Shown here: piece by piece, positions 43,672 to 64,000 of the stretch
Position numbering within the stretch: position 1 is the stretch's first letter
Layout of the letters: each line of letters starts with the position of its first letter
Assembly (NCBI GenBank): GCA_030524175.1
Contig: JAUNHC010000022.1
Coordinates: 21,669 to 85,668 of the forward strand
Length of the DNA stretch: 64,000 nucleotides
DNA from: Eubacteriales bacterium
GTDB lineage: Bacteria > Bacillota > Clostridia > Lachnospirales > Lachnospiraceae
Direction: 5' to 3'
Translations under genes and position numbers: made by a program
The notes under the pieces: generated by a model
Seen by the model: the letters and a program-made list of their open reading frames with translations, nothing else
Told to the model about the DNA's origin: nothing
Database searches by the model: none

Positions 43672-43683
43672 AAAAATCACCTC

Positions 43684-48348: not shown

Positions 48349-49389
48349 TTACATTAAATAAATTTCTTTACCAGTTTCCGCATTCACAAGCATTACATAC
48401 TGATTGGAAGTATCACTGGTTAATTCCAGATACCAGATCGGCTCCGCGACGTACTGCTGCGCTTCATTGATGTATACACGCTCATAAAACTTTGCCCGAT
48501 TTACCGTATACACTGCTTCATCTAAAAGATTTTCATATTTCATCTCTACGGTTGCCGCAATCTCATCGAAGCTTTTTAAGGTTACACTTTCCCCTGTTTC
48601 TTTGAAATTGTATAACCCGTACACACGTAAACTTTCAATTCCTCTGGTAGAATAAATAGCCACTACCGGGCAGGAATCCGGAGTATCATATGCCAGCTGC
48701 TGTGCCATGACAGATAATTCAGGATAAACCGGGATTCCACTCACTACCTGTCTTGCATATACAACGCAGGCATCATCTTCCTTGGTCCACTCATTTTTTC
48801 TTTTGTCGTTTTCCAATAATCCTTCCTGGACCAATTGATTTTCGATTTCCTCTGAAACTTCAGCACTCAACGGATACGTCTTAAAATCCAGCGTCTCTGT
48901 CATATATCCCGCCTGCTCCAGGGCTTCTTTTACTTTTTGTACCGCCGCCTGTTCATCTACTGAAGAATTTGCTGCCGAAACATAACGTTCCATGTTCTCC
49001 GGGTTTGTTGCCCCTATCTGTCCATAATAGGTAAAGTTATCTGTCGAAATTCCAATCCCCCTTCCAATATTTACATGTGTACCATCTGCAAAAACATAGG
49101 CATTTTCTTCTGGATATAAGTCGTTTGCTGGATCATTATATTGATTAACAATATCCTGTCCTTCCACAAAATTTGCATAGGCTTTTGCACTGTCTCCAAA
49201 GTTGACACTTTCCAGAAGAATTTTGGGAGCCGTATTCTTTTCATTGATCTCCTCTGGAACCTCCAGCTCACATTGGAATCTGACTTTACCTGACTCTGAT
49301 GTTTTTTCATAGGTTTGTGCATATATGTTATGAGTAAAAAATGTACACGCAAACCCATACAGACCCAAAAGCATTATCAATTTTCTCAT
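48349..49389 (-). CDS. Secreted protein of the lipoprotein family (non-lipidated member)
   Basis: 346 residues. A signal peptide (LIMLLGLYGFACTFF...NIYA/QTYEKT) ends in a normal signal-peptidase-I site without a lipobox cysteine. The mature part is homologous to the two lipoproteins at 52899 and 54825: shared patches are EKTSxSGKVxF, GATxxxNM, LxYDTPDxxPxxxIYSTRGIE, FYERVxxNExQxYVAEPIWY and MLVNAxTGKEI. It is more divergent than those two are from each other. Function unknown; a two-lobed substrate or peptide-binding protein is possible. It ends the operon that includes the ABC transporter and the small secreted proteins. Confidence 0.75.
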   Translation of the reverse strand: MRKLIMLLGLYGFACTFFTHNIYAQTYEKTSESGKVRFQCELEVPEEINEKNTAPKILLESVNFGDSAKAYANFVEGQDIVNQYNDPANDLYPEENAYVFADGTHVNIGRGIGISTDNFTYYGQIGATNPENMERYVSAANSSVDEQAAVQKVKEALEQAGYMTETLDFKTYPLSAEVSEEIENQLVQEGLLENDKRKNEWTKEDDACVVYARQVVSGIPVYPELSVMAQQLAYDTPDSCPVVAIYSTRGIESLRVYGLYNFKETGESVTLKSFDEIAATVEMKYENLLDEAVYTVNRAKFYERVYINEAQQYVAEPIWYLELTSDTSNQYVMLVNAETGKEIYLM

Positions 49390-49408
49390 TATTTTCTCCT
49401 CATAGCAT

Positions 49409-49789
49409 TCAGGGCGTATAACGTCCCTCTACATGTAAACTACTTGTACTTGCCGTACAGTGCATAAAATATTCATAACCAGGTGCCGCATAGCTTTTAT
49501 ACGACGCACTTGATCGTGGTTTATTACTTGATATCTCAGCAACATTAGATGTCACCGTACCATGCAGTTTACTAGAAGTACATTTTAGCGTACCGCTTTT
49601 ACTAAATTTCTCTCCTGTCACATAGAACCTTTGCTCATCATCAGCTTTAACTGCCCTTTTAGAAATAATATCTCCCGGAACGGTAATATTAAATGTAACC
49701 GTCTGAGCCATAACAGGAATCGTACCAACACTCACACATGCCAGTGCCATGAGACCACACAACCATTTCCTTCTACTCGTTTTCATCAT
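49409..49789 (-). CDS. Small secreted protein, family member E
   Basis: About 126 residues. A signal peptide (KWLCGLMALACVSVGTIPVMA) leads to a mature part of about 100 residues beginning QTVTFNITVPGDIISKRA and ending LHVEGRYTP. The five family members in this window share TVPG, EQRFYVTG, the SYKSYA-type patch and the GRY ending. The mature part looks beta-rich and has two cysteines here. Start ATG 49789 follows AAGGAGG. The 60 nt upstream repeat the 3' end of the ABC ATPase gene, which shows that this gene arose by tandem duplication. Function unknown to me. Confidence 0.72.
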   Translation of the reverse strand: MMKTSRRKWLCGLMALACVSVGTIPVMAQTVTFNITVPGDIISKRAVKADDEQRFYVTGEKFSKSGTLKCTSSKLHGTVTSNVAEISSNKPRSSASYKSYAAPGYEYFMHCTASTSSLHVEGRYTP

Positions 49790-49858
49790 AACTTTTTCCT
49801 CCTTTAAAATTAAATATTTTACCTTTAATTTACAAATTACGCCTTCACTTTTCATAAC

Positions 49859-50239
49859 TTAGAGCCTATAACGTCCAGTTACTTGCAGGCCATTTGTACT
49901 CGATGTAAAGTATATATAGTAATAAGAGCCAGCTACTGCATAATTTCGATAAGAAACACTTGCTTCCGGCTTATCTTTTGATATCTCAGCAACAGCAGAT
50001 ATCCCTCTACCATTCGAGTCATAGACCATACACCTCAATATGCCATCTTTATTAAAGCTTGCCCCCCTTATATAAAACTTCTGATCATTGTTATCTTTCA
50101 CCCCCCTTATTCTCACTGCCTCCCCCGGAACTGTAATGCTAAATGAAACTGTCTCAGCCATAGCAGGAACCATACCCATATTCACACACACCAGTGCCAT
50201 TAAACCGCATAACCATTTTTTCTTACTCATTTTCTCCAT
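49859..50239 (-). CDS. Small secreted protein, family member D
   Basis: 126 residues with signal peptide KKWLCGLMALVCVNMGMVPAMA and a mature part beginning ETVSFSITVPGEAVRIRG and ending LQVTGRYRL. It is the closest relative of member E. Its ATG (after GGAGG) overlaps the end of the ABC ATPase gene by 13 nt, so its translation is tied to the transporter. This linkage suggests that the transporter and the secreted proteins work together, as exported factor and handling or immunity pump, which is inference. Confidence 0.72.
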   Translation of the reverse strand: MEKMSKKKWLCGLMALVCVNMGMVPAMAETVSFSITVPGEAVRIRGVKDNNDQKFYIRGASFNKDGILRCMVYDSNGRGISAVAEISKDKPEASVSYRNYAVAGSYYYIYFTSSTNGLQVTGRYRL

Positions 50240-50919
50240 AATTTTTCCTCCTTTAATTTTTGGGTAGTGTCCTTTAATTTACAAATTACACCTCCTTCCA
50301 TCTCATAAACCTCATCGCAAAGGACATCTATATCTTCCCGGTTATGACTGGCCAAAATGATCAGTTTGCCTTCCTCCTTCATTGTTAATAACAGTTCCCG
50401 AATCTCTCTCACTCCATTTTTATCCAGGCCATTCATCGGTTCATCCAAAATTAAAATCCCAGGATCTTCCATGATCGCCTGTGCCAGCGCCAATCTCTGG
50501 CGCATACCAAGTGAATATTTTCCCACTGGACGTTTTAGTGTAGGATCTAATCCTACTTTTTTTAATACAGAATAAAGATAATCTTTATTCCCTTTATTCC
50601 GCAGCGTATAAAGAAATTCTAAATTATGGTATCCATTCCATGTTCTTAAAAAGCCAGGTTCTTCTATAATAATCCCAGCCTCCGTCAACATATCCTTATC
50701 TTTTCCCATCACCTTTCCATTTACAGAGATCGTCCCCTCATCACATGAAAGGAAACCACAAATAGCTTTAAACAAGACGGTTTTTCCTGACCCATTATGT
50801 CCTACAAGCCCATAGATCCTGCCGCTTTCACAAAAAAGCGAAACGTCTTTTAAAACTCTATTATCTTTAAAGCTTTTACTTACATGCGATACCTCAATGA
50901 TATAATTCTTTCCATCCAT
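50227..50919 (-). CDS. ABC transporter ATPase (LanF/BcrA size class)
   Basis: A 230-residue ATPase: Walker A GHNGSGKTV, Q-loop-like IIEEPGF, signature YSLGMRQRLALAQ, Walker B ILILDEPMNGLD and H-loop LASHN. Start ATG 50919 (MDGKNYI) after TAGGAGGGG. Together with two permeases of 255 and 286 residues it has the composition of the LanFEG bacteriocin-immunity transporters. The permease sequences gave no direct family match by eye, so this is a comparison of layout. Confidence 0.88.
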   Translation of the reverse strand: MDGKNYIIEVSHVSKSFKDNRVLKDVSLFCESGRIYGLVGHNGSGKTVLFKAICGFLSCDEGTISVNGKVMGKDKDMLTEAGIIIEEPGFLRTWNGYHNLEFLYTLRNKGNKDYLYSVLKKVGLDPTLKRPVGKYSLGMRQRLALAQAIMEDPGILILDEPMNGLDKNGVREIRELLLTMKEEGKLIILASHNREDIDVLCDEVYEMEGGVICKLKDTTQKLKEEKLWRK

Positions 50920-50932
50920 ATATTCTCCCCTC

Positions 50933-51793
50933 CTAGATATCCTCATTTTCCCAATGAAACTCTATCTTCTTTACCCTAATTAAAATAAGAATTGTCATGC
51001 CCAAAATTCCAATTACCAAAAAACCGATCATATAGGGAATGGACGGCAGCCAATAATATCCATAATCCGGCGTAGCAATCCTGGCTAATTCTGGCCATAT
51101 AGTAGGGACAAAAAGTGCTAGTTTATGCCTTAATAGAGGATGCATATTTAATACAGGAAACAACGCAATCGCAAAAACGAGACTACCAGCAACAGCAAAA
51201 ATTTTATCCATAAACAAGCTCACAAGGAACATCAAAACTCCTATAAACGTGCAGACCAGCGTACAAATGAAAATTTCCATCCCCATAAGCTGAAGGGGTG
51301 TAAATTCGGAGAAAATTTCATAATAAATATACACTGAGCTGTCAAATTGCGTAAGCGCTCTAGTCAAGCCCGCAGTTCTTAACAGCTTGCCCCATTCCGT
51401 GCTCCACTCTATACTCGGCAAAAGAGGAAGGATTGTACAAACCACTGCTAAAATGGTCAGGACTACAGAGCGGATAAAAATCCCTCCAATTTGCCCTAAT
51501 ACCCAGCGTTTTCTTCCTACACGAATCGCATGATACATGTTTACATGCTGCATAAAGGGCGCGTCTGAATTGACGTAAATTACCCCGAACCAAAACATAA
51601 TTAAATAGGTAAAAGTGCACATGACAAAAGGAAACACGCACCATGAAGAAGGATAATTTACCGCCTCCGAAAATTCCCGGATCGGACCTACATAAGTTCT
51701 GCTGATCACGAGTATTAAAATTGCAAATACAGCCATTTTGCTGTTAAAAATTTTCAGCATAGAATTTTTCCAGGTATATTGCAATAACTTCAT
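50933..51793 (-). CDS. ABC transporter permease 2
   Basis: 286 residues with about six TM helices (KMAVFAILILVISRTYV, FPFVMCTFTYLIMFWFGVIY, VVLTILAVVCTILPLL, VCTFIGVLMFLVSLF, VAGSLVFAIALFPVL, MIGFLVIGILGMTILILI). A soluble loop lies between TM 3 and 4. It follows the first permease by 9 nt and precedes the ATPase. No named family recognised. Confidence 0.75.
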   Translation of the reverse strand: MKLLQYTWKNSMLKIFNSKMAVFAILILVISRTYVGPIREFSEAVNYPSSWCVFPFVMCTFTYLIMFWFGVIYVNSDAPFMQHVNMYHAIRVGRKRWVLGQIGGIFIRSVVLTILAVVCTILPLLPSIEWSTEWGKLLRTAGLTRALTQFDSSVYIYYEIFSEFTPLQLMGMEIFICTLVCTFIGVLMFLVSLFMDKIFAVAGSLVFAIALFPVLNMHPLLRHKLALFVPTIWPELARIATPDYGYYWLPSIPYMIGFLVIGILGMTILILIRVKKIEFHWENEDI

Positions 51794-51802
51794 ATTCCAC
51801 CT

Positions 51803-52570
51803 CTACAATCTGCCTTTTATTTTCTTGTAGATTCCCCAAGTAAATAGTGCGGAAAAGCCCAAACTGCAACCGAAAACAATGAAAAAGTATTGTATATCTG
51901 ATGAAAACTGGTGTAATTCAGGATTTATTAACATAATATTAAACCAGCCGCTCCCACGATATTCCATTAAGATCTGGTGCATTAAAATAGGACTGATCAA
52001 AATAAGCATCCTGTTCGATATAAACAGTGACAAAAACGATGCTGCCAAAGATAAAATCCCTGCAAGCATTCCCATCTGCAGCGCATATAAAAATATATAA
52101 AGCCAATAATGCCCTTCCGAAACCAACGAATGATACATTCCTACTAAATAACTGCCTTGATCCACGCCAGAAACTGTCCAGGGTACCTGCAAACGTATGC
52201 TCACAACAAATATCAACGCACCTAAAACCATAGTGATTACGGAACTTCCATAAACAACAATCGCTTTAGATACAACATATCTGCATGTACTTCCCCTGTT
52301 CATGCTATATCTGGCATACTTATTTTCCAGATCTTCACAGAATACAGTAGCATAAGAAAAAGCACAAAAAGCATAAGCGATCATGGTCCCTGACATATCT
52401 ACCGCCATACAATAGGTATCCAATGCGTTGCCATTTATCAAGCCTTCTTCAAACGCGTAGTTTTCAAGAGAAAACCATAAGGATACTGCGACACCTATAA
52501 TAGCGATATAGATCGGATAATTCTTCATCAGGCGGATCATATCTGTTTTCAGATAGTGTACTCTATTCAT
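51803..52570 (-). CDS. ABC transporter permease 1
   Basis: 255 residues with about six TM helices (YIAIIGVAVSLWFSL, TMIAYAFCAFSYATVF, VITMVLGALIFVVSI, YIFLYALQMGMLAGILSLAA, ILISPILMHQILM, FFIVFGCSLGFSALFTW). ATG 52570 overlaps the preceding stop (ATGA), so translation is coupled to the 97-residue protein. Layout like ABC2_membrane proteins. Confidence 0.78.
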   Translation of the reverse strand: MNRVHYLKTDMIRLMKNYPIYIAIIGVAVSLWFSLENYAFEEGLINGNALDTYCMAVDMSGTMIAYAFCAFSYATVFCEDLENKYARYSMNRGSTCRYVVSKAIVVYGSSVITMVLGALIFVVSIRLQVPWTVSGVDQGSYLVGMYHSLVSEGHYWLYIFLYALQMGMLAGILSLAASFLSLFISNRMLILISPILMHQILMEYRGSGWFNIMLINPELHQFSSDIQYFFIVFGCSLGFSALFTWGIYKKIKGRL

Positions 52571-52860
52571 ATATTCCTCCTTTTACAAACTACCCCCATA
52601 CATATAAGGCATACTATAACGATACATACAATGATTTTCGCTGCACAAAATAACAAACTTCTGCTTTTTCTCCGCTTCTCTTTTCTTTTAATGATGTCCT
52701 TACTGGCCTCAAGAATCTCCTCCAATTTATCATAGGGGATCTTCATATCTCTAACTTTTCTATATATTTCCTTTTCACACTCATCTGGTGCATTTTCGAT
52801 ACATCTATTCAGCCTTTTTCTTTCTTCCACTACATAGTACGGGATCGTTGACCTATTCAT
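52567..52860 (-). CDS. Small single-TM protein of the cargo operon
   Basis: 97 residues. A charged helical N-terminal part (EERKRLNRCIENAPDECEK, KLEEILEASKDIIKRKEKR) is followed by one TM helix (AAKIIVCIVIVCLICMGVV). It may be a membrane-anchored regulator or a transporter accessory protein; no family recognised. ATG 52860 follows AAGGAAGGCGG and it overlaps permease 1 by 4 nt. Confidence 0.6.
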   Translation of the reverse strand: MNRSTIPYYVVEERKRLNRCIENAPDECEKEIYRKVRDMKIPYDKLEEILEASKDIIKRKEKRRKSRSLLFCAAKIIVCIVIVCLICMGVVCKRRNI

Positions 52861-52898
52861 AATACCGCCTTCCTTGTCAATCTATATTGTATACTTTA

Positions 52899-54011
52899 TT
52901 ATGGCAGAAATATTTCTTTTCCCGTGTTTGCATTAACCAACATAACCGATTTACTAATATCATTCTCGATCACTTCAAAATACCATATAGGTTCTGCAAT
53001 ATATCTCTGTTCCTCATTCAAAGATACTCTCTCATAGAATTTCGCTCTCGTTACTTCATAATTTGCATCATTCAGGACATTTTCAAATTTTTCCTCTACT
53101 ACAGCCCCAATCTCTTCAAAAGATTTCAAAGGAAGAAGTTCTTCTGTATTTTTTAAATTATAGACCCCAGAAATGCTCAACTGCTCTATCCCTCTCGTAG
53201 AATATATCACTAGAATTGGCGCATTGTCCGGTGTGTCATATGCCATCTGTCTGGCTATACTCATCATCTCATGAAAAATTGGAACGCCTTCGTTTTCTTG
53301 ATATGCGTAAATAAAATACGCATCATCATCCTGACTCCAGGTTTCTTTTCTTTTCTCTTCTAGTAATAATTCCTCTTTGACATATTCTTCTTCCAAATTT
53401 TTCATCACTTGATGATTTAAAGGATAAAACTTAAAATCAAAATCTTCCACATGATACCCTAATTCTTCTATCGTTTTTTTAACTTCTTCAAGACATTCTT
53501 CGCCTGTTTTAAAGGTAACCCCCTGTCCTTCAAATGCAGCCATATTATCAGAGCTCGTAGCACCTATGTTGCTATAATATCGGGAATTTGTGCTTCCATA
53601 ACTAACTCCCGCTTCTATAGAGAGCGCTTCCTCGTCTGGAAACACATAATAATCAGACTGAGTTCTTCCCCCATCTGCGGGTATGTTCTGTTCTTCTATC
53701 ACTTCTTTTCCCTCTCCAAATATTGTCCAGGCTTTTTCCCGATCATACTGATACAGCCCCTCAACTGTCACCGCCTCTATTGATTGTGCTTTCATGTTTT
53801 CCGGTATTTCCAGCTTACAATTAAACGTCACCTTTCCTGAGTCAGATGTCTTTTCGTACTTTTCAGGAAAACTGCCTGCCTCTTGCGCTATGGAAGTCTC
53901 TGCACTTTCTGTTTTCTCATCTACTTTTTTATTTGTATTTACAGATCCTCCGCATCCAGCACAGACAACGCTTACACATAATATCGTATATAGCCATGTC
54001 ATTTTTTTCAT
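52899..54011 (-). CDS. Lipoprotein of the agr-linked cargo (copy 1)
   Basis: 370 residues. Start ATG 54011 (MKKMTWLYTIL) after TTAGGAGAA; the lipobox VVCAGC places the lipidated cysteine near residue 19. The mature part is almost identical to the copy at 54825 and homologous to the secreted protein at 48349. Shared patches include FEGQGVTFKTGEECLEEVKK, LAYDTPD-type MAYDTPDNAP and FYERVSLNEEQRYIAEP. It lies after the hairpin following secreted protein A and before the single-TM protein. Function unknown; surface binding or immunity protein are options. Confidence 0.78.
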   Translation of the reverse strand: MKKMTWLYTILCVSVVCAGCGGSVNTNKKVDEKTESAETSIAQEAGSFPEKYEKTSDSGKVTFNCKLEIPENMKAQSIEAVTVEGLYQYDREKAWTIFGEGKEVIEEQNIPADGGRTQSDYYVFPDEEALSIEAGVSYGSTNSRYYSNIGATSSDNMAAFEGQGVTFKTGEECLEEVKKTIEELGYHVEDFDFKFYPLNHQVMKNLEEEYVKEELLLEEKRKETWSQDDDAYFIYAYQENEGVPIFHEMMSIARQMAYDTPDNAPILVIYSTRGIEQLSISGVYNLKNTEELLPLKSFEEIGAVVEEKFENVLNDANYEVTRAKFYERVSLNEEQRYIAEPIWYFEVIENDISKSVMLVNANTGKEIFLP

Positions 54012-54034
54012 AATATCTTCTCCTAAAATTAACC

Positions 54035-54059
54035 GAGGGATACAATACATGTATCCCTC
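54035..54059 (-). terminator. Hairpin between secreted protein A and lipoprotein 1
   Basis: GAGGGATACA and TGTATCCCTC form a perfect 10-bp stem with a 5-nt loop. With only a weak T-run after it on the minus strand, it may act as a partial terminator or an mRNA stabiliser that sets the ratio of secreted protein to lipoprotein. Confidence 0.6.
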
Positions 54060-54095
54060 TCAATTGTACTCACTGCCAAGTTTACATCACATATA

Positions 54096-54479
54096 TCACG
54101 GTGTATATCGTCCAGTCACATGGAGACCGGATGCGCTAGCGGATGTTGTCATATAGTAATACTGTTTTGATGGCGCATATGTCCTATATGATGCATTACT
54201 TGACAATTTATTTGGAGAAATAGATGCCATGTTTGACTTTATTGAACTGGTGTTACGGTTGATTGATATACAATACAAGATTCCTGATTTATTAAACGAA
54301 GTTCCCGTTACATAGAATCTCTGTTCCGTATCCGCCTTCTCTGCCCTCTTAGAAAGAATATCACCCGGCACAGTAATGTTAAAATCAACAGTTTGTGCAA
54401 ACACTGGAACCGTACAGCCTGCCACACATAAAGATGCTACTAAACCACACATTGCTCTTTTAAGTTTTTTGTTTAACAT
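54096..54479 (-). CDS. Small secreted protein, family member A
   Basis: 127 residues. Signal peptide KRAMCGLVASLCVAGCTVPVFA/QTV, then the mature part QTVDFNITVPGDILSKRA ... EQRFYVTGTSFNKSG ... LHVTGRYTP. Start ATG 54479 has AAAGGAG upstream. The frame is also open upstream through the tail of the truncated AgrD-like leader, so a -1 frameshift in that leader would fuse the two. The mature protein looks beta-rich, with one cysteine. Members A-C are close relatives of each other, D and E are a second pair. Size and Sec export recall lactococcin-972-like bacteriocins, but no sequence homology is claimed. Confidence 0.75.
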   Translation of the reverse strand: MLNKKLKRAMCGLVASLCVAGCTVPVFAQTVDFNITVPGDILSKRAEKADTEQRFYVTGTSFNKSGILYCISINRNTSSIKSNMASISPNKLSSNASYRTYAPSKQYYYMTTSASASGLHVTGRYTP

Positions 54480-54538
54480 AGTTTGCTTCTCCTTTCGCTT
54501 TGAATTCTTCACACGTTCTGGAAATTTGGGCTGGTATC

Positions 54539-54634
54539 CTAAAAAGGACAGGTCGTATTGTCTACTCTTACAGCTATCCTTTTTGCAAGATACCCTAATG
54601 CCTTGTTACTTTTTGTAGATGGTTCCTTGTCCAT
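54539..54634 (-). CDS. Truncated AgrD-like leader peptide, copy 1
   Basis: ATG 54634 with GGGAGG 9 nt upstream opens a 31-codon frame, MDKEPSTKSNKALGYLAKR, then IAVRVDNTTCPF and TAG. Cys29 and the NTTCP context align exactly with the intact AgrD at 58541. The rest of an AgrD tail, LGYQPKFPERVKN, is present immediately downstream in the -1 frame, across CCT TTT TAG. Either a T was lost from a run or the ribosome slips back one base at TTT. The peptide as read lacks the recognition tail. Confidence 0.7.
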   Translation of the reverse strand: MDKEPSTKSNKALGYLAKRIAVRVDNTTCPF

Positions 54635-54663
54635 TGGTTTATACCTCCCTTTAAAGTAGTTGC

Positions 54664-54722
54664 ATTATAACATAAAACTTTTGACTTCTCTGCCAATTGT
54701 AAAAAACAGACTATAATTTTGT
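54664..54722 (-). promoter_or_regulatory. Promoter of unit copy 1 with candidate LytTR half-sites
   Basis: On the minus strand an extended -10 (TGTTATAAT, TATAAT at 54664-54669) has no good -35. ACAATTGGC (54692-54700) and ACAAAATTA (54714-54722) lie 22 nt apart in direct orientation just upstream of the -35 position, the layout used by AgrA/LytTR activators. Confidence 0.5.
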
Positions 54723-54824
54723 CAAAAATAGACTTCTCAAAATACGGACATGACATACATACACAGAAATCACTCTTATATTCCTGGCATCCTTCTTCCT
54801 TACCAATCCATGTTGTATACTTTA

Positions 54825-55937
54825 TTACGGCAGAAATATTTCTTTTCCCGTATTTGCATTAACCAAAGTTACCGATTTACTAATATCATTCTCGATCACT
54901 TCAAAATACCATATAGGTTCTGCAATATATCTCTGTTCCTCATTCAAAGATACTCTCTCATAGAATTTCGCTCTCGTTACTTCATAATTTGCATCATTCA
55001 GGACATTTTCAAATTTTTCCTCTACTACAGCCCCAATCTCTTCAAAAGATTTCAAAGGAAGAAGTTCTTCTGTATTTTTTAAATTATAGACCCCAGAAAT
55101 ATTCAAATACTCTATTCCTCTTGCAGAATATATCACTTGAATTGGCGCATTGTCCGGTGTGTCATACGCCATCTGTCTGGCTATACTCATCATCTCATGA
55201 AAAATTGGAACGCCCTCGTTTTCTTGATATGCATAAATAAAATACGCATCATCATCCTGACTCCAGGTTTCTTTTCTTTTATCTTCTGGTAATAATTCCT
55301 CTTTGACATATTCTTCTTCCAAATTTTTCATTACTTGATAATTTAAAGGATAAAACTTAAAATCAAAATCTTCCACATGATACCCTAATTCTTTTATCGT
55401 TTTTTTAACTTCTTCAAGACATTCTTCGCCTTTTTTGAAGGTAACCCCCTGTCCTTCAAATGCAGCCATATTATCAGAGTTCATAGCACCTATGTAGCTA
55501 TAATATCGGAAATTTGTACTTCCATAAAAAACTCCCGCCCCTATAGAGAGTGATTCTTCATCTGGAAACCTATAATAATCAGTCTGAGCTCTTGCCTTAT
55601 CCGCTGATGTATTCTGTTCTTCTATTACTTCTTTTCCCTCTCCAAACATTGTCCAGGCTTTTTCTCGATCACACTGATACAGCCCCTCAGCCGTTACAGC
55701 CTTTATCGAATTTGCATTCATGTTTTCCGGCATTTCCAGCTTACAATTAAATGTCACCTTTCCTGAGTCAGATATCTTTTCATACTTTTCAGGAAAACTG
55801 CCTGCCTCTTGCTCTATGGAAGCCTCTGCGCTTTCTGTTTTCTCATCTACTTTTTTATTTGTATTTACAGATCCTCCGCATCCAGCACAGACAACGCTTA
55901 CACATAATATCGTATATAGCCATGTCATTTTCTTCAT
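54825..55937 (-). CDS. Lipoprotein of the agr-linked cargo (copy 2)
   Basis: 370 residues starting at ATG 55937 after TTGGGAGAA, with lipobox VVCAGC as in copy 1. The two copies differ at scattered positions, mostly in the N-terminal 130 residues (for example AVTAEGLYQCDREKAWTMF against AVTVEGLYQYDREKAWTIF), and are nearly identical over the last 200. It belongs to unit copy 2, after secreted protein B. The high similarity suggests recent duplication or gene conversion. Function unknown. Confidence 0.78.
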   Translation of the reverse strand: MKKMTWLYTILCVSVVCAGCGGSVNTNKKVDEKTESAEASIEQEAGSFPEKYEKISDSGKVTFNCKLEMPENMNANSIKAVTAEGLYQCDREKAWTMFGEGKEVIEEQNTSADKARAQTDYYRFPDEESLSIGAGVFYGSTNFRYYSYIGAMNSDNMAAFEGQGVTFKKGEECLEEVKKTIKELGYHVEDFDFKFYPLNYQVMKNLEEEYVKEELLPEDKRKETWSQDDDAYFIYAYQENEGVPIFHEMMSIARQMAYDTPDNAPIQVIYSARGIEYLNISGVYNLKNTEELLPLKSFEEIGAVVEEKFENVLNDANYEVTRAKFYERVSLNEEQRYIAEPIWYFEVIENDISKSVTLVNANTGKEIFLP

Positions 55938-55960
55938 ACTTTCTTCTCCCAAAATTAACC

Positions 55961-55985
55961 GAGGGATACAATATATGTATCCCTC
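55961..55985 (-). terminator. Hairpin between secreted protein B and lipoprotein 2
   Basis: Same perfect 10-bp inverted repeat as at 54035 (GAGGGATACA / TGTATCCCTC), loop ATATA. Conservation in both full units supports a function in mRNA control. Confidence 0.6.
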
Positions 55986-56021
55986 TTAATTATAATCGCT
56001 GCCAAGTTTACATCACATATA

Positions 56022-56405
56022 TCACGGTGTATATCTTCCAGTCACATGGAGACCGGACACGCTAGCGGACGTTGACATATAATAATACTGCCCTGCTGGC
56101 GCATATTTTCTATACGATGCATTACTTGACGGTTTGCTTCGAGAAATAGATGCGGTGTTCGACCTTATCGTACTATCATTAAGATTAATCGACGTACAAT
56201 ATAGTGTCCCTGCCGAACTAAACGAAGTTCCTGTTACATAAAATCTCTGTTCAGAATCAGCCTTCAATGCTCTTTTAGAAATGATATCTCCCGGCACAGT
56301 AATGTTAAAAGTAACAGTTTCTGCAAACACTGGAACCGTACAGCCTGCCACACATAAAGATGCTACTAAACCACACATTGCTCTTTTAAGTTTTTTGTTT
56401 AACAT
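56022..56405 (-). CDS. Small secreted protein, family member B
   Basis: 127 residues, same signal peptide as member A (ending VPVFA), mature part ETVTFNITVPGDIISKRA ... EQRFYVTGTSFSSAG ... LHVTGRYTP. Start ATG 56405 after AAAGGAG. Compared with A, changes cluster in the central third (SINLNDSTIRSNTASISRSK against SINRNTSSIKSNMASISPNK), while the motifs at both ends are kept. The central diversity may reflect selection for new specificities. Confidence 0.75.
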   Translation of the reverse strand: MLNKKLKRAMCGLVASLCVAGCTVPVFAETVTFNITVPGDIISKRALKADSEQRFYVTGTSFSSAGTLYCTSINLNDSTIRSNTASISRSKPSSNASYRKYAPAGQYYYMSTSASVSGLHVTGRYTP

Positions 56406-56464
56406 AGTTTGCTTCTCCTTTCGCTTTGAATTCTTCACACGTTCTGGAAATTTGGGCTGGTATC

Positions 56465-56560
56465 CTAAAAAGGACAGGTCGTATTGTCTACTCTTACAGC
56501 TATCCTTTTTGCAAGATACCCTAATGCCTTGTTACTTTTTGTAGATGGTTCCTTGTCCAT
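56465..56560 (-). CDS. Truncated AgrD-like leader peptide, copy 2
   Basis: Identical in arrangement to copy 1: 31 codons from ATG 56560, ending NTTCPF and TAG, with LGYQPKFPERV in the -1 frame. The -1 frame is open through the start of secreted protein B. Confidence 0.7.
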   Translation of the reverse strand: MDKEPSTKSNKALGYLAKRIAVRVDNTTCPF

Positions 56561-56589
56561 TGGTTTATACCTCCCTTTAAAGTAATTGC

Positions 56590-56648
56590 ATTATAACATA
56601 AAACTTTTGACTTCTCTGCCAATTGTAAAAAACAGGCTATAATTTTGT
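56590..56648 (-). promoter_or_regulatory. Promoter of unit copy 2
   Basis: Extended -10 TATAAT at 56590-56595 (minus strand), ACAATTGGC at 56618-56626 and ACAAAATTA at 56640-56648, as in copy 1. Confidence 0.5.
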
Positions 56649-56712
56649 CAAAAATAGACTTCTCGAAATATATGTATCCCTCTTAATCGTTACCAAATTT
56701 ACATCACGTGTA

Positions 56713-57096
56713 TTACGGTGCATATTTTCCAGTCACACGGAGATTTGATACGCTAGCCATCACCGTCATATGATAATACTGCCCTACTGGCGCATATTTC
56801 CTATATGATGCGGTATCTAACAGTCTGCTTTGAGAAATAGATGCGGTGTTCGACTTTATCGTACTATCATTAAGATTAATCGACGTACAATATAAAGTTC
56901 CTGCCGAACTAAACGAAGTTCCCCTTACATAAAATCGTTGTTCAGAATCAGACTTCAATGCTTTTTTAGAAACAATAACACCCGGCACAGTAATGTCAAA
57001 AGGAACTGTTTCCGCAAACACCGGAACCGTACAGCCTGCCACACATAAAGATGCTACTAAACCGCACATTGCTCTTTTAAGTTTTTCGTTTAACAT
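56713..57096 (-). CDS. Small secreted protein, family member C
   Basis: 127 residues: signal peptide KRAMCGLVASLCVAGCTVPVFA, mature part ETVPFDITVPGVIVSKKA ... EQRFYVRGTSFSSAG ... LRVTGKYAP. It is the most divergent of A-C at the conserved positions (TGKYAP instead of TGRYTP, YVRG instead of YVTG). It is the first cargo gene downstream of the XRE/agr intergenic region, and it lacks the lipoprotein partner that follows A and B. Confidence 0.75.
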   Translation of the reverse strand: MLNEKLKRAMCGLVASLCVAGCTVPVFAETVPFDITVPGVIVSKKALKSDSEQRFYVRGTSFSSAGTLYCTSINLNDSTIKSNTASISQSRLLDTASYRKYAPVGQYYHMTVMASVSNLRVTGKYAP

Positions 57097-57155
57097 GTTT
57101 TACTTCTCCTTTCGCTTTGAATTTTTCACATGTTCTGGAAATTTGGATTGGTATC

Positions 57156-57251
57156 CTAAAAAGGACAGGTCATATTGTCTGCTCTTACAGCTATCCTTTT
57201 TGCAAGATACCCTAATGCCTTGTTACTTTTTGTAGATGGTTCCTTGTCCAT
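57156..57251 (-). CDS. Truncated AgrD-like leader peptide, copy 3
   Basis: 31 codons from ATG 57251, ending RADNMTCPF and TAG. Here the -1 frame continues LGYQSKFPEHVKNSKRKEK and then stops at TAA (57100-57102), just before the ATG of secreted protein C. This is the expected length of a full AgrD and suggests the ancestral form. Substitutions relative to copies 1 and 2 show that the frame break predates the last duplications. Confidence 0.7.
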   Translation of the reverse strand: MDKEPSTKSNKALGYLAKRIAVRADNMTCPF

Positions 57252-57280
57252 TGGTTTATACCTCCCTTTAAAGTAATTGC

Positions 57281-57339
57281 ATTATAACATAAAACTTTTG
57301 ATTTCTCTGTCAACTGTATAAAACAAGCTATAATTTTGT
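57281..57339 (-). promoter_or_regulatory. Promoter of unit copy 3
   Basis: Extended -10 TATAAT at 57281-57286 (minus strand). The half-site reads ACAGTTGAC (57309-57317), closer to the ACAGTT core of known LytTR sites than in copies 1 and 2, with ACAAAATTA at 57331-57339. Confidence 0.55.
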
Positions 57340-57447
57340 CAAAAATAGACTTCGGACAATTTTTCCACGGACATCTGCAAAGTTGCCTTTCATTATTTTT
57401 CTTATCCCCGCCCAATTCTACACGATTTTCCAATTATACTTTTTAAA

Positions 57448-57464
57448 ACTTCATCTTTAGAAGT
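57448..57464. promoter_or_regulatory. 17-bp palindromic operator, site 1
   Basis: ACTTCATCTTTAGAAGT, arms ACTTC/GAAGT. On the minus strand the adjacent ATACTTC context is the same as at the agr promoter site (60889), so this site probably controls leftward transcription into the cargo. The 176 nt from copy 3's promoter to the XRE gene hold only these sites. Confidence 0.7.
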
Positions 57465-57500
57465 ATATCTGCATTTTAACACGGTAAAATTATATATTAA

Positions 57501-57517
57501 ACTTCAACTTTAGAAGT
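57501..57517. promoter_or_regulatory. 17-bp palindromic operator, site 2
   Basis: ACTTCAACTTTAGAAGT, one base different from site 1, lying just before the ribosome site of the XRE gene. Its place suggests autoregulation by the XRE protein. Confidence 0.7.
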
Positions 57518-57527
57518 GAGGGATAAA

Positions 57528-57779
57528 ATGAAAATATATTGGAACGGAAAGTCCAAAAATATCATCGGAACAAAAGTAAAAGAATTGCGTAAGGCACAAG
57601 GCATTTCCCAAAGAACCCTCGCCGCCCGGTTACAGACGGAGGGGTTTGAATTTACAGATTTGACAATTCTTAGAATCGAACAAGGAAAACGCTTTGTACC
57701 AGATTATGAAATCGCCGCAATCGCAAGCTATTTTCATATTTCAACCGATTATCTTTTAGGACTCACAGACATAAAATGA
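57528..57779 (+). CDS. XRE-family regulator of the agr-linked cargo
   Basis: 83 residues, one helix-turn-helix domain (IIGTKVKELRKAQGISQRTL, FTDLTILRIEQGKRFVPDYE) and a short tail (ISTDYLLGLTDIK). ATG 57528 is chosen over GTG 57516 because GAGGG is well placed. It is the only gene on the plus strand between 47.5 and 63 kb. Its promoter region and that of the agr regulator share a palindrome, so it is the best candidate for a repressor that keeps the quorum-sensing genes and the cargo off. Confidence 0.85.
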   Translation: MKIYWNGKSKNIIGTKVKELRKAQGISQRTLAARLQTEGFEFTDLTILRIEQGKRFVPDYEIAAIASYFHISTDYLLGLTDIK

Positions 57780-57825
57780 GCGGCTCTGTCTTTTAACTCT
57801 TGACGGATACCGCTTATTTCATTTT
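57773..57825. terminator. Bidirectional terminator between the XRE gene and agrB
   Basis: AAAATGA-GCGG pairs with CCGC-(TTATT)-TCATTTT around a long loop. It is placed between two convergent genes and carries A/T runs on both sides. Confidence 0.65.
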
Positions 57826-57840
57826 ATCGTATTATGAAAC

Positions 57841-58428
57841 CTATGCCTTATTTCCTATATCCTTCTGGTTATATTTCAATATGCCTGCTATCATGGCAAC
57901 AGCAATCAATATGTGAATCCAGACGCCGACTTCCATCAAATATTGTTGCTGCAGACATATTCCTAACACCATCACGATTGCATAGCACACCAAAATTTTT
58001 CTTGTATTTTTAACATATTTTCTTTTCTCATTTTCATCCAGACAATGAATCGGATTTTCTACGGGAGCATATATCCAAATAAATACAGCCGTACCAATCC
58101 AAATACATATAAGAAGTATTTGTGGGAAATGTATCATTTTCTTTCCTAAAATAGCTGCATTCATGACTGCCGTTGAAATCAGATAGCAACGTAATTCTGT
58201 ATCCGCATGATATCCTCCCGCATAAGGTCTCAAAAGAAAAATTCCTAAAAATACAAGCAGAATAAATGGCAGCTCTCTCCAAAAAATACCGCAAACAACT
58301 AATGTCAGGACATTCATCAATATCATGATCCCCTGGTGCAACCCGTATTGAATAATCTCCCGTTCTTCCTCATCACTGCAAATTTTTTCTGCTATTTTTA
58401 CCGTATATGGCTTCTTTCCTTTTTTCAT
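57841..58428 (-). CDS. agrB: AgrB-like autoinducer-processing protease
   Basis: 195 residues, five to six TM helices. The catalytic region is conserved: LRPYAGGYHADTELRCYLIS holds the essential His and Cys of AgrB cysteine endopeptidases, which cut the AgrD C-terminal tail and help form the thiolactone ring. The start is ATG 58428 (MKKGKK) with GGGAGG 5 nt upstream, not the earlier ATG at 58446. It lies 112 nt after the agrD gene and is the last gene of the agr operon. Confidence 0.93.
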   Translation of the reverse strand: MKKGKKPYTVKIAEKICSDEEEREIIQYGLHQGIMILMNVLTLVVCGIFWRELPFILLVFLGIFLLRPYAGGYHADTELRCYLISTAVMNAAILGKKMIHFPQILLICIWIGTAVFIWIYAPVENPIHCLDENEKRKYVKNTRKILVCYAIVMVLGICLQQQYLMEVGVWIHILIAVAMIAGILKYNQKDIGNKA

Positions 58429-58540
58429 CAAAACCTCCCATTTCAAATAAATACGGTTGTCATAGACTCCCCTGCCTATAACAACCGCATTCTTTTAATC
58501 AAAAAAGCATATTTCCCTACGACCTTTTTCTACCATCAAA

Positions 58541-58687
58541 TTATGACTTTTTTAACTTTTTTACAGCAGAAGGAAGCTTCGCTTGATAACCATAATACGG
58601 ACACGTTGTATTTGCATCCCTCTCTGCCAGCTTTTTCGCAATACCTTTTACTATTTTTGTGCCAAATTTTGTGGTATCTCTTTTCAT
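58541..58687 (-). CDS. agrD: AgrD-like cyclic (thio)lactone autoinducer precursor
   Basis: 48 residues too short for routine ORF calling: MKRDTTKFGTKIVKGIAKK, then LAERDANTTCPYYGYQAKLP and SAVKKLKKS. An amphipathic N-terminal helix, Cys29 as ring former and a charged tail with a conserved GYQxKxP patch match Clostridia AgrD peptides. RBS AAAGGAGG lies 7 nt before ATG 58687. The mature signal should be a ring starting at Cys29; its exact C-terminal residue cannot be set by inspection. It sits between agrC and agrB, as expected. Confidence 0.9.
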   Translation of the reverse strand: MKRDTTKFGTKIVKGIAKKLAERDANTTCPYYGYQAKLPSAVKKLKKS

Positions 58688-58820
58688 GTCAGTTCCTCCT
58701 TTTATTTGTTACTAATAACATACCACATATTCTTTATATATTTTCGCCAATGTCAAAACCTGTATATTTTTTTGTCAAAATTGGAACTAAGTAAGATCCA
58801 AACCGATTAATTCTTCCCCC

Positions 58821-60098
58821 TTATATAACATTTGACAAATATATTAAAACCTGTACCCGGAAACGATTTCCCGTATACTCGATTTTCATATCGCCTTCGT
58901 ATGATTCCACTACCTGCCGCACGCTTTCCAGCCCCAATCCATGAATCGCTGTGTTTTCCTGGCTTGTCTTAAATTTGTTGGCTTCTTTTCTCACCGTATT
59001 TGCATAACTGTTCTCAACTAAAATGAGCAATACATCCTTTTGCACCCGAACATGAACGGATAAATATTTTTCATCAGATTTACTTGATTCCCTGATCGCG
59101 TTGTCAACTAAATTTCCCAGGATGACACATATATTAAAATTTTTACTATATAGCTGTTTCGGGATCTGGATATCAATATCCATCACATCCAGTAATTCAT
59201 CTGCCCGTCGAAGCATATAGTTCAAAACGCCATCAATCTCTCTATTTCCCGTAGAAACCTTTTCAGAGGGATTTAGCATGAACTTCTCCATATTCGCTAA
59301 ATAGCGCACCATATCCTCATTGCTATTCTGCTGCGCCATAGCAGACAGTTCTATCATATGATGTTTCATATCGTGCTGTAATTTCTTTATGCGTTCTTGA
59401 GACTCCTGCATAACATCAAGTTGGTTTGCATATACGTCAACCATCTGTTCTAATTTTTTCTTATTCATTTGCGCCACATAAAACTTTGTTAATGTATGGT
59501 ACAAATAAAACAAAAATACGTTAATAAGTATCAAGCTGAAGGCAGCCGTCAGAACCACTTGTTTATCATTCCCAGTCAAAATTGCAATACAATGCATACA
59601 GATAATACTAATTATAGGAATCATCCCTAAAATAAATATATCCATGAGGGGCAGCGAAACATCTTTTTCCTCGTCTTGAGACCTTTTTAAAAAAGCAGTG
59701 GAAATCAAAATTGCCAGACTAGTTATTAGTTCATAGCTTGCTTCTACTGGCTGTCCTGACACATATCCACTCAATAATTGAATAACTATGATATCTGCAA
59801 ATATATTGACAGCATCTATTACAAATATCATGAATAATTTTTTAGTTAATTTAATATCATAAGGAAATAATAATAGCAATAAAGCTAAAATATTTGAAAT
59901 GACATTGATACTCGGTGTCACAAAAATCTCGCTAACAGCATATGTAAAAAAACATCCCAGAATATATGATATCCAAATGTTTTTCCATCTGCATTTTTCC
60001 TTGGACACAAAAAAATCTATGTATCTCTTAATTGCATAAAATCGAATCCCATTTGCAGCCAACCCTAGCAAAAGCTCAGCCATTATAATGAATTTCAT
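58821..60098 (-). CDS. AgrC-like sensor histidine kinase
   Basis: 425 residues. About six TM helices in the N-terminal 200 residues, then a coiled linker, a phosphoacceptor segment (KKLQHDMKHHMIELSAM) and a GHKL ATPase (VILGNLVDNAIRES, HGLGLESVRQVVESY). This is the HPK10 type that senses cyclic autoinducer peptides. The start overlaps the response regulator stop by 23 nt. All motifs are intact, in contrast to its partner regulator. 133 nt separate it from agrD. Confidence 0.92.
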   Translation of the reverse strand: MKFIIMAELLLGLAANGIRFYAIKRYIDFFVSKEKCRWKNIWISYILGCFFTYAVSEIFVTPSINVISNILALLLLLFPYDIKLTKKLFMIFVIDAVNIFADIIVIQLLSGYVSGQPVEASYELITSLAILISTAFLKRSQDEEKDVSLPLMDIFILGMIPIISIICMHCIAILTGNDKQVVLTAAFSLILINVFLFYLYHTLTKFYVAQMNKKKLEQMVDVYANQLDVMQESQERIKKLQHDMKHHMIELSAMAQQNSNEDMVRYLANMEKFMLNPSEKVSTGNREIDGVLNYMLRRADELLDVMDIDIQIPKQLYSKNFNICVILGNLVDNAIRESSKSDEKYLSVHVRVQKDVLLILVENSYANTVRKEANKFKTSQENTAIHGLGLESVRQVVESYEGDMKIEYTGNRFRVQVLIYLSNVI

Positions 60099-60808
60099 TT
60101 GACATACTCTCCATCACTTTTCTTCTTATCATCACACGGTTCGATCTGCTGATATCCAGCACATCTCCATTTACCATTTTTACCCATTGATAAGTAATTT
60201 CTTTTACATTATGGATATTGATCAAATATGATTTATGAATACGCAAAAACAAGTTCTCAGGACAGTCATCTTCCACTTCTGATAGTTTGCCGTAAAAACT
60301 TTGCACCTCTTTTCCCATCACAATATTGATTTTTCTTCCGTCACTTTGAAAATATAAAATGTCTTTATACATAATGCGATATGTATTCCCCTGATTTTTG
60401 TATTTAAAATTACCCTCATTCCTACCGACAATATGAAATATTTTCTCCATAACATGATAGAGTTTTTCTTTTCTTATCGGCTTTACTAGAAAATCAAATG
60501 GCTGGTTTTGAAACAGTTCCATCGCATACTCTTTCTTGGAAGAGATATATACAAGAAACATTCCTGAGTTCTTCAGTATGTCTCTGATATACTTTCCAAT
60601 TTCCACACCGTTCAGCCCTGGCAGCTCAATATCCAGGAAAAGAATATCTGGTGCTTTTTCATTTTTTAAATACTTACTTAGCACCCCCCCCGTCGTAAAA
60701 AATATCCACCTCCAGCTTGATACATTTTTCAAATGCAAAATCTCGGAGCATTTGTTCTATTTCTGCACAGGTACTGATTTCATCGTCACATACAATAATA
60801 CGCATCAT
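60076..60808 (-). pseudogene. AgrA-type LytTR response regulator, frameshifted at a G8 tract
   Basis: ATG 60808 (after GGGAGGGAAA) opens a receiver domain: IIVCDDEISTCAEIEQML ... KLEVDIFYDGG. At eight G residues the frame shifts and ends at TAA 60674. The rest of the protein continues in the other frame: LSKYLKNEKAPDILFLDIEL (phosphoacceptor Asp), FLVKPIRKEKL, then a LytTR DNA-binding domain (MYKDILYFQSDGRKINIVM, LRIHKSYLINIHNVKEI). Seven G would restore one continuous protein of about 243 residues. It could be a phase-variable gene, a fixed mutation or a homopolymer error in the assembly. First gene of the agr operon. Confidence 0.85.
60684..60691 (-). repeat. G8 homopolymer tract at the frame break
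   Basis: Eight consecutive C on the plus strand (G on the coding strand), within codons for a Gly-Gly turn of the receiver domain. Loss of one G, or gain of two, restores the reading frame. Confidence 0.9.
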
Positions 60809-63031: not shown

Positions 63032-63949
63032 TTACTGGATCTGCCCCTGGCTCTCCCCCGGCTTCGTTGTCATCAAACGGTACAATGCCGTATTTTTCGG
63101 AAAACTATTCTCAAAAGGCACGAGATTCCCGGAACAACGAATCAGGCCATGTCCAGCGCCCACATTCGTGATGTACGACAGCTGGTTATCGGAAATATTC
63201 AAAAGGGAGGCAAGTTCATCCCGGTCTGTTGTCGCCTGGTTCAAAAGGATCAAAAACTCGCTGTTGGCCAGCATCAGTCTCGCCGTATCGGATCGCAAAA
63301 GCTCCTCCACGTTCTGCGTCAGCCCCGTCACAAACCCGGAATACTTTCGGATTCGCTTATACAGACGATAGAAAAAGTCTGCGCTATACTGATACCGGAA
63401 CAGAAGGTAAAACTCGTCTGCAAAGATCCAGGTAGTCTTTCCCTTCTTCCAGTTCTGGATCACCCGGTTGAAAATGGAATCCAGTGTCACCAGCATCCCC
63501 AAGGGCATAAGCTGCTCCCCCAGTTCCCGGATATCATAGGCAATGATCCGGTTTTTCGTATTGACATTTGTTGGCTGGGCAAACGTATTCAGGCTTCCGT
63601 TGATAAACAACTCGGAAGACAGCGCCAGACCTCTCGCTTCTTCCTCCGGCTGAAGCATCAGCTGGCGGTACAGATCCTTCAGTGTTGGCGTCTGGCCTTG
63701 ATAGCCGCCCCGGATATAATCCCGGTAGACATCCGCCGTACAGCGGTCCAGGATGGACTTTTCCTTTGCAGATAAGTTTCCTGCACCCACCAGCTGCTCA
63801 AACAGGGAAAGGATAAATTCCGACTTTTCGATCAACGAATTCTTATCGTTGCCATAGGCCGAGTCCATATCCATGGCATTTAAATGGGTATCCGATGTGG
63901 CGGAAATCTTGATGACTTCCCCCTGCAGGGCTTCTACCAGAGAGGCAAA
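63032..63949 (-). CDS. VirB4/TraE-like conjugation ATPase, 3' exon
   Basis: 306 codons of the C-terminal half: FASLVEALQGEVIKISATS, HLNAMDMDSAYG, a Walker B-like IFADEFYLLF and the GLTQNVEELLRSD and NSEFLILLNQ segments of VirB4/TraE ATPases, ending TKPGESQGQIQ. VirB4 powers assembly of the type IV secretion channel. The Walker A half is absent because the frame meets a group II intron end at 63950; the 5' exon lies outside the window. ATG 63874 is internal to the domain and not the real start. Confidence 0.88.
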   Translation of the reverse strand, partial: FASLVEALQGEVIKISATSDTHLNAMDMDSAYGNDKNSLIEKSEFILSLFEQLVGAGNLSAKEKSILDRCTADVYRDYIRGGYQGQTPTLKDLYRQLMLQPEEEARGLALSSELFINGSLNTFAQPTNVNTKNRIIAYDIRELGEQLMPLGMLVTLDSIFNRVIQNWKKGKTTWIFADEFYLLFRYQYSADFFYRLYKRIRKYSGFVTGLTQNVEELLRSDTARLMLANSEFLILLNQATTDRDELASLLNISDNQLSYITNVGAGHGLIRCSGNLVPFENSFPKNTALYRLMTTKPGESQGQIQ

Positions 63950-64000
63950 ATCGAGTGGGTCGGCGGTATTACTACCGCTTTCCCCTCTAAGAACCGTACG
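63950..64000 (-). mobile_element. 3' end of a group II intron inside virB4
   Basis: On the minus strand the last 51 nt before the exon read as the end of domain V (CGTACGGTTCT) and domain VI: GAGGGG pairs with CCC-A-CTC leaving a bulged A eight nt from the end, the branch point, and GCGGTA pairs with TACCGC on a GTAA loop. The intron ends ...CTCGAT (AY end) and TTTGCC resumes the VirB4 frame. The rest, including any reverse transcriptase, lies beyond the window. Confidence 0.8.

What the first reader, a model, noticed from the sequence alone, without database searches (positions are those of the whole stretch)
48349..60808. Agr quorum-sensing set fused to an amplified family of small secreted proteins, lipoproteins and an ABC transporter
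A complete agr-type gene set reads into a cargo of five small Sec-exported proteins (A-E, ~100-residue mature part with TVPG, EQRFYVTG and GRY motifs), three related ~350-residue exported proteins (two lipidated) and an ATPase with two permeases of LanFEG size. Gene overlaps tie one secreted protein to the transporter. I know no described system with this composition. The best guess is a quorum-controlled bacteriocin/immunity or surface-protein system carried by an ICE.
Basis: partly seen in the sequence, partly recalled or inferred. Interest (0 to 1): 0.82.

Follow-up and report, generated by a model that had tools for sequence, protein, structure and literature searches.

The report
Quorum-linked secreted-protein and transporter cassette
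A mobile stretch of a gut-type bacterium's DNA links a cell-to-cell signalling switch to a widespread, undescribed gene set for a small secreted protein, a surface lipoprotein and a pump, which most resembles a self-protected bacterial weapon, though that activity is untested.

Summary
The cargo is not a one-off. Small secreted protein (S), lipoprotein (L), two permeases (P1, P2) and ATPase (ATP) form an operon, nearly always in that order, in unrelated genomes of the family, in other families of the class and on a Niallia (Bacilli) plasmid. S has no significant Pfam or NCBIfam match (20 scanned). L has one distant solved relative, 5coz.
The agr link is real but optional: AgrA/AgrC-type genes lie within 6 kb of 13 of 35 cassettes against 0 of 40 control stretches, and one relative has a single operon agrD-agrB-S-L-P1-P2-ATP. 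In this genome the 22-nt double box upstream of agrD recurs upstream of three S units, with only two other matches. A strong hairpin follows S in 22 of 29 cases, against 1 of 74 for L, so S is probably the abundant product.
Best reading, unproven: a quorum-switched, Sec-exported bacteriocin-like protein with a LanI/LanFEG-like self-protection module, carried by a conjugative element. S could not be folded (tool off).

The parts
60076..60808 (-). agrA-type response regulator (receiver + LytTR), reading frame broken at the 8-G run 60684-60691
   Evidence: ORFs in two frames; PF04397 3.8e-18 and PF00072 1.3e-10 on the 3' part; only run of >=7 G/C in the window
58821..60098 (-). agrC-type GHKL histidine kinase
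   Evidence: PF14501 6.9e-22
58751..58780 (-). 22-nt-period double box TTTTGACA...TTTTGACA upstream of agrD
58541..58687 (-). agrD, 48-aa autoinducer precursor (core ...TTCPYYGYQAKLP...)
   Evidence: TIGR04223 2.8e-7, over cut-off
57841..58446 (-). agrB
   Evidence: PF04647 5.5e-37
57516..57779 (+). small HTH gene on the opposite strand; a similar ORF (by eye) lies in L026
   Evidence: PF01381 4.3e-6; L026 6637-6900
57315..57344 (-). double box upstream of the S_E unit (1 mismatch)
   Evidence: C9:78983-79012
57156..57251 (-). agrD-like short ORF 1 (31 aa, stops after ...TCPF)
   Evidence: no NCBIfam match on its own
56713..57096 (-). S_E small secreted protein
56624..56653 (-). double box upstream of the S_D unit
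56465..56560 (-). agrD-like short ORF 2
56022..56405 (-). S_D small secreted protein
55961..55985 (-). hairpin between S_D and lipoprotein 2
   Evidence: z -6.9, -3.2; fold
54825..55937 (-). lipoprotein 2 (L family)
54698..54727 (-). double box upstream of the S_C unit
54539..54634 (-). agrD-like short ORF 3
   Evidence: no NCBIfam match
54096..54479 (-). S_C small secreted protein
54035..54059 (-). hairpin between S_C and lipoprotein 1
   Evidence: z -5.0; fold; missed (called L start too far upstream)
52899..54011 (-). lipoprotein 1 (L family)
   Evidence: broad family profile matches 5coz_A 3.6e-11
52567..52860 (-). 97-aa single-TM protein; a similar reading frame (by eye) lies in L026 between L and P1
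51803..52570 (-). permease P1
50933..51793 (-). permease P2
50227..50919 (-). ATPase with Glu at the Q-loop position
   Evidence: PF00005 1.4e-29; best NCBIfam TIGR03740, 174.2 bits, below cut-off 309.75
49859..50239 (-). S_B small secreted protein, overlaps the ATPase
49409..49789 (-). S_A small secreted protein
48349..49389 (-). L3: exported L-family protein without a lipobox

Best explanation
This is an agr-controlled copy of a Bacillota cassette, S-L-P1-P2-ATP, carried on a conjugative element. AgrB trims AgrD to a cyclic peptide, AgrC senses it, and AgrA (broken in this assembly) would bind the double boxes upstream of agrD and of three S units, raising the signal and the S proteins together. 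Each S is exported by Sec and released as a mostly basic protein of about 100 residues. A hairpin after S lets most transcripts end there and a minority read into L and the transporter. L at the outer membrane face and the LanFEG-like pump P1-P2-ATP most likely protect the producer from S by binding it and expelling it from the membrane. S would then be a secreted antagonistic protein of a new family. Shown: genes, order, boxes, hairpins and co-occurrence. Inferred: that AgrA binds the boxes, that the hairpin limits read-through, that S is antagonistic, that L-P1-P2-ATP is immunity.
For: Conserved operon order in unrelated genomes. S found with the cassette in 29 of 29; no S detected in 25 of 44 complete cassettes, as for orphan immunity. 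agrD-agrB-S-L-P1-P2-ATP contiguous in L124; agrB-agrD-S-L in L107. AgrA/AgrC-type genes near 13 of 35 cassettes against 0 of 40 control stretches, Fisher 1.2e-5. Double box: 6 matches in the 5.95-Mb genome at <=1 mismatch, 4 of them upstream of agrD and the S_E, S_D and S_C units; reversed control pattern 3. Hairpin (z<-2) in the 120 nt after the stop: S 22 of 29, L 1 of 74, P1 4 of 58, P2 2 of 54, ATP 15 of 56. Best NCBIfam match of the ATPase is the lantibiotic-protection subunit, below cut-off; Glu at the Q-loop in 38 of 39 ATPases that score E<1e-60 with the cassette model (one of the 39 is in a second ABC set of L035), Gln in 20 of 31 others. LanI lipoprotein plus LanFEG pump is the known self-protection pair (passages of PMC4239024, PMC5786555, PMC8538875). 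Purifying selection on S and L.
Against: No family, solved structure or fold supports S as a bacteriocin (structure prediction unavailable). agrA is out of frame here, so this copy may be silent. The ATPase misses the TIGR03740 cut-off by far. Across loci the double box is weak: P<=0.05 in 4 of 18 TCS-bearing against 1 of 17 other loci. Promoter similarity is modest: 44-46 of 80 against 43 at most in 2000 random stretches. Most cassettes have no agrB near (31 of 36). 4 of 22 S proteins are acidic. In the window only S_D and S_C, not S_E, S_B or S_A, have the hairpin.
Confidence: 0.5

Rival explanations
1. The cassette is a resistance module against peptides made by others. The sensor system (agr, other TCS or BlaI/MecR-like) turns on S as a secreted decoy or sequestering protein and L-P1-P2-ATP as a pump; S itself harms nobody.
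For: Other regulators beside some copies (BlaI/MecR-like by eye in L029 and L036); no S detected in 25 of 44 complete cassettes; LanFEG-like pumps occur in non-producers (PMC4239024 passages).
Against: Tandem S copies and the hairpin after S suggest a product made in excess; agr control answers to own density, not to foreign peptides; S was found only beside cassette genes.
Confidence: 0.22
2. S and L are density-controlled surface or matrix proteins (adhesion, biofilm), and the ABC transporter acts in their assembly or in the envelope.
For: Sec signal and lipobox; C-terminal G-x-[YWF]-x-P end shared by most S over great distance, unusual for fast-changing toxins; only weak Ig-type matches.
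Against: No wall anchor seen by eye in S; the ATPase is nearest to peptide-protection ATPases; such a pump is not needed for Sec proteins.
Confidence: 0.15
3. The agr neighbours are chance passengers of a cargo site and do not control the cassette.
For: agrB is absent near most cassettes; agrA is broken here; labels are scattered on the L tree.
Against: 13 of 35 against 0 of 40; single operon in L124; shared double boxes rare elsewhere in the genome.
Confidence: 0.1

Closest known systems
LanI lipoprotein + LanFEG ABC transporter (NisI/NisFEG, SpaI/SpaFEG; CprABC)
   Same: One lipoprotein, one ATPase and two different permeases of about 255-290 aa in one operon, often beside a two-component system; closest curated ATPase model is TIGR03740; Glu at the Q-loop position (that this marks LanF is recalled, not read).
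   Different: ATPase scores 174 bits against a cut-off of 309.75; permeases match no Pfam or NCBIfam family over its cut-off; L is ~350 aa, akin to 5coz and distantly DUF6034; lanthipeptide genes were not searched for; partner is a ~100-residue Sec-exported protein.
Lactococcin 972-like bacteriocins (e.g. streptococcin B, scbABC)
   Same: Sec-exported small protein encoded with predicted immunity and transporter genes and under peptide quorum sensing (PMC11796350, passages).
   Different: S matches neither Pfam nor NCBIfam models of such a family (20 scanned); scb is described with two partner genes (B, C), here there are four; scb is tied to ComE and ComR, not agr.
agr (AgrBDCA) quorum-sensing systems
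   Same: AgrB and AgrD over curated cut-offs; GHKL kinase and LytTR regulator domains; double boxes upstream of agrD.
   Different: Local target is the S units; agrA is out of frame here; extra decayed agrD-like ORFs lead three S units.

Membership tests
agr quorum-sensing system | AgrB peptidase | tested here: met
   PF04647 127.3 bits, cut-off 23
agr quorum-sensing system | AgrD precursor with Cys-containing core | tested here: met
   TIGR04223 30.6 bits, cut-off 19
agr quorum-sensing system | AgrC GHKL kinase and intact AgrA LytTR regulator | tested here: not met
   kinase met (PF14501); agrA has both domains but its frame is broken in this assembly
agr quorum-sensing system | AIP-dependent induction of targets | not testable with these tools
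   only shared promoter boxes seen
LanI/LanFEG immunity | ATPase over the TIGR03740 cut-off | tested here: not met
   174.2 against 309.75 bits
LanI/LanFEG immunity | one ATPase with two distinct permeases and a lipoprotein | tested here: met
LanI/LanFEG immunity | Glu in place of Gln in the ATPase Q-loop (recalled as a LanF trait) | tested here: met
   38 of 39 ATPases scoring E<1e-60 with the cassette model, the other Asp; the LanF trait itself not confirmed in print here
LanI/LanFEG immunity | protects against a cognate bacteriocin | not testable with these tools
   needs bench work
Lactococcin 972 family | match to the curated family models | tested here: not met
   no such family among matches of 20 S proteins at E<=0.1 in Pfam and NCBIfam
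Lactococcin 972 family | fold | not testable with these tools
   structure prediction switched off
DUF6034 lipoproteins (for L) | over the PF19499 cut-off | tested here: not met
   of the L proteins scanned only L036:9030-10094 hits it, 25.8 bits against 27; window L1 and L3 do not (L2 not scanned)

The most novel reading that the evidence does not exclude
S is a new, Bacillota-wide class of Sec-exported, unmodified ~100-residue antagonistic proteins. Most are followed by a hairpin and a dedicated lipoprotein plus Glu-loop ABC self-protection module, and several lineages independently placed it under agr control, here amplified to five copies on a conjugative element.
Probability: 0.4. Interest if true: 0.8.

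Novelty: new variant of a known kind. Interest (0 to 1): 0.62.

Why it matters
To my knowledge (recalled, not searched) direct targets of agr-type systems in gut Clostridia are little known; here a specific local regulon is suggested by shared promoter boxes. I found no name for the cassette although it occurs across a class and beyond: a new secreted-protein family with its own pump and lipoprotein. If S is antagonistic, it opens a bacteriocin class that the curated models scanned here do not see; if not, it is still a conserved unexplained secretion-linked system.

Tried and rejected
Family searches for S: no significant match in Pfam, NCBIfam or PADLOC (best E 0.0086 for one member of 20); PDB profile best E 0.16 and 0.077 to immunoglobulin-type chains and receptors, taken as noise. 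Relatives of S: none in genome contigs or viral contigs; of L: three in genome contigs, none in viral contigs or phages. S_A in plasmids: none, but a P2 search led to Niallia, and further plasmid searches found only that record. DUF2712/DUF2705 came to mind for S and the permeases from memory; no Pfam hit to them appeared, so not used. A class-wide double box was tested and is weak. Programmed frameshifting at the decayed agrD-like ORFs (all three share the same stop) was considered; common descent explains it as well. A phage-defence role: no PADLOC match of window S_A, L1, L3, P1, P2 or the 97-aa protein at E<=0.01; matches of the ATPase there look generic. Papers; DUF6034 is in 0 papers of the held library. 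No listing or passage I saw describes this cassette, but the library holds only open-licence papers and these were word searches.

Weak points of my counts: the AgrA/AgrC models were built from hits in the same loci, so repeats the test with single window sequences; its control slices (13 kb) only roughly match the space searched around L. The 40 control stretches were picked by hand at round coordinates. L026, L027 and L028 are close kin and not independent. I read neighbourhoods of 51 loci and 17, not of every hit; some lie at contig ends. 'No S detected' can mean a diverged S. One search tested only gaps of 25-700 nt (S>L 14 of 18, L>P1 1 of 10, P1>P2 0 of 3, P2>ATP 0 of 4, P1>ATP 1 of 3, S>S 1 of 2, ATP>S 0 of 2, L>L and L>S 0 of 1 each) and left out S>L pairs with smaller called gaps, so repeats it after every stop codon; both use mononucleotide shuffles (25 or 30). 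Regulators and recombinases named 'by eye' were not scanned. One row of A8 (L031) was cut at the wrong end by my mistake.
Full report
Anatomy. The genes read on the minus strand from 60808 to 48349: agrA, agrC, agrD, agrB, then (after a small HTH gene on the other strand) three units each headed by a short agrD-like ORF, S_E, S_D-L2 and S_C-L1, then a 97-aa one-TM protein, P1, P2, ATPase, S_B, S_A and L3. AgrB (PF04647), AgrD (TIGR04223) and the GHKL kinase are clear; the LytTR regulator is clear but out of frame at 60684-60691. S proteins are 44-83% identical to the first row; L2 is 90% and L3 43% identical to L1. dN/dS is 0.23-0.52 for mature S pairs and 0.31 for L1/L2, which points to purifying selection.

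Not a one-off. In 397 genomes of the family, L matched 98 at E<=1e-3, but many of these cover only the signal-peptide end; by my count 38 have E<1e-6. S gave 46 at E<=0.01, of which by my reading about 12 are more than a signal-peptide match. In 391 genomes of the class, L matched 20 at E<=1e-6, 18 of them outside the family. Reading neighbourhoods shows 44 complete L-P1-P2-ATP loci, 19 of them with a detected S. P1-P2-ATP keep their order; L usually stands first, but follows ATP in L125 and L204; S stands before L in most and also after ATP in a few (window, L031, L036). 29 of 29 S ORFs (E<1e-5) lie within 2.5 kb of a cassette gene. The own genome has further copies on C87 and C64. The plasmid pMEGANia of Niallia taxi, a member of the Bacilli, carries S-L-P1-P2-ATP; the record used lists no genes there. 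Most S proteins keep a C-terminal G-x-[YWF]-x-P end; exceptions are S_B and those of L034, L107, L124, L207 and Niallia. The nearest named relatives are Lachnospiraceae, so the host is probably one too.

The agr link. With HMMs, AgrA- or AgrC-type genes lie within 6 kb in 16 of 36 cassettes with two or more transporter genes (window included), both in 13, agrB in 5; controls 0 of 40. With single window sequences as queries, 13 of 35 (window excluded) against 0 of 40, Fisher 1.2e-5; agrB 4 of 35. AgrD over the curated cut-off accompanies agrB or its remnants in the window, L035, L107, L124 and L127. In L124 agrD, agrB and S follow each other with gaps of 2 and 5 nt, then L-P1-P2-ATP. On the L tree the S-with-agrB label needs four changes, so the link is scattered, by repeated gain or loss.

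Promoters. Upstream of agrD and of the three agrD-like ORFs lie two TTTTGACA-like boxes with a 22-nt period, followed by a TATGTTAT stretch at a spacing that differs by about 5 nt (by eye). In the whole genome the pattern has 6 matches at <=1 mismatch, 4 of them these sites; the reversed control gives 3. The pattern was derived from these sites, so the point is its rarity elsewhere. Similarity over 80 nt is 44-46, above 300 shuffles each (maximum 41-43) and 2000 random stretches (maximum 43), but not by much. Across other loci such boxes are clear only in some, e.g. L096, L111, L126; overall 4 of 18 TCS-bearing loci against 1 of 17 others.

Hairpin. In the 120 nt after the stop codon a hairpin with z<-2 occurs after S in 22 of 29, after L in 1 of 74, P1 4 of 58, P2 2 of 54 and ATP 15 of 56, the last as expected at an operon end. 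An earlier test of intergenic gaps gave the same picture: S>L 14 of 18, L>P1 1 of 10. In the window S_D and S_C have it, S_E, S_B and S_A do not. This suggests that S is made in excess over L and the pump; the same logic at lantibiotic structural genes is recalled, not read.

Transporter and L. The ATPase's best curated match is the lantibiotic-protection ATPase, below its cut-off. Glu stands at the Q-loop in 38 of 39 ATPases that score E<1e-60 with the cassette model (38 in cassettes, one in a second ABC set of L035); of 31 other ATPases (control stretches and weaker matches) 20 have Gln and 3 Glu. That Glu here marks LanF is recalled; two searches found no held paper on it. LanI lipoproteins and LanFEG pumps protect lantibiotic producers (passages read: PMC4239024, PMC5786555, PMC8538875). 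L's broad profile aligns over most of its length to 5coz_A, an uncharacterised solved protein; the narrow profile A7 found nothing.

Mobility. A TraG-type ATPase (63032-64000) and a lysozyme/CHAP gene (61018-62892) lie on one side, three tyrosine recombinases (40404-44802) on the other. L026 (Merdimonas faecis) and L027 (Blautia hansenii), 63-90% identical in L, P1, P2 and ATP, have a serine recombinase nearby (by eye). L026 starts with a remnant of an agrD-like ORF before L, and in L096 a similar leader runs into L (read by eye), so the agrD-like leader has decayed in different ways in the closest kin.

Verdict. The set is real, conserved and in part agr-linked; agr control here is likely (boxes) though agrA is broken in this assembly. 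That S is an antagonistic protein with L-P1-P2-ATP as its immunity is the best but unproven reading (about 0.5). For published parallels I saw only passages or abstracts: streptococcin B (PMC11796350, passages) and TMcins (PMC12328743, abstract, outline and passages; a different system).

Noticed in passing
window 60684-60691: The only run of seven or more G/C in the window lies in agrA and coincides with its frame break: phase variation, fixed loss or assembly error.
   Followed up: partly
window 57251-57156, 56560-56465, 54634-54539: Three agrD-like ORFs share the same early stop after the core Cys-Pro-Phe; the reading continues in the -1 frame, and in two copies runs on into S.
   Followed up: partly
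L035 12909-15001 and 4980-8365: A second agr set (agrB cut short) with its own L-P1-P2-ATP cassette and another ABC set between them in the same genome.
   Followed up: partly
L036: Two S/L/ABC cassettes back to back, followed by BlaI/MecR-like genes (by eye) and another S-like ORF.
   Followed up: partly
window 18886-25458, 25800-26816, 28474-29490: A 2190-aa ORF followed by two 338-aa ORFs 69% identical to each other; looks like a large polymorphic-toxin-type protein with candidate immunity genes, by sequence impression only.
   Followed up: no
window 40404-44802: Three tyrosine recombinase genes in tandem, two of them overlapping, like three-recombinase elements (recalled).
   Followed up: no
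L218 4509-8424: Complete S-L-P1-P2-ATP cassette on the Niallia taxi plasmid pMEGANia; the plasmid record used lists no genes there.
   Followed up: yes
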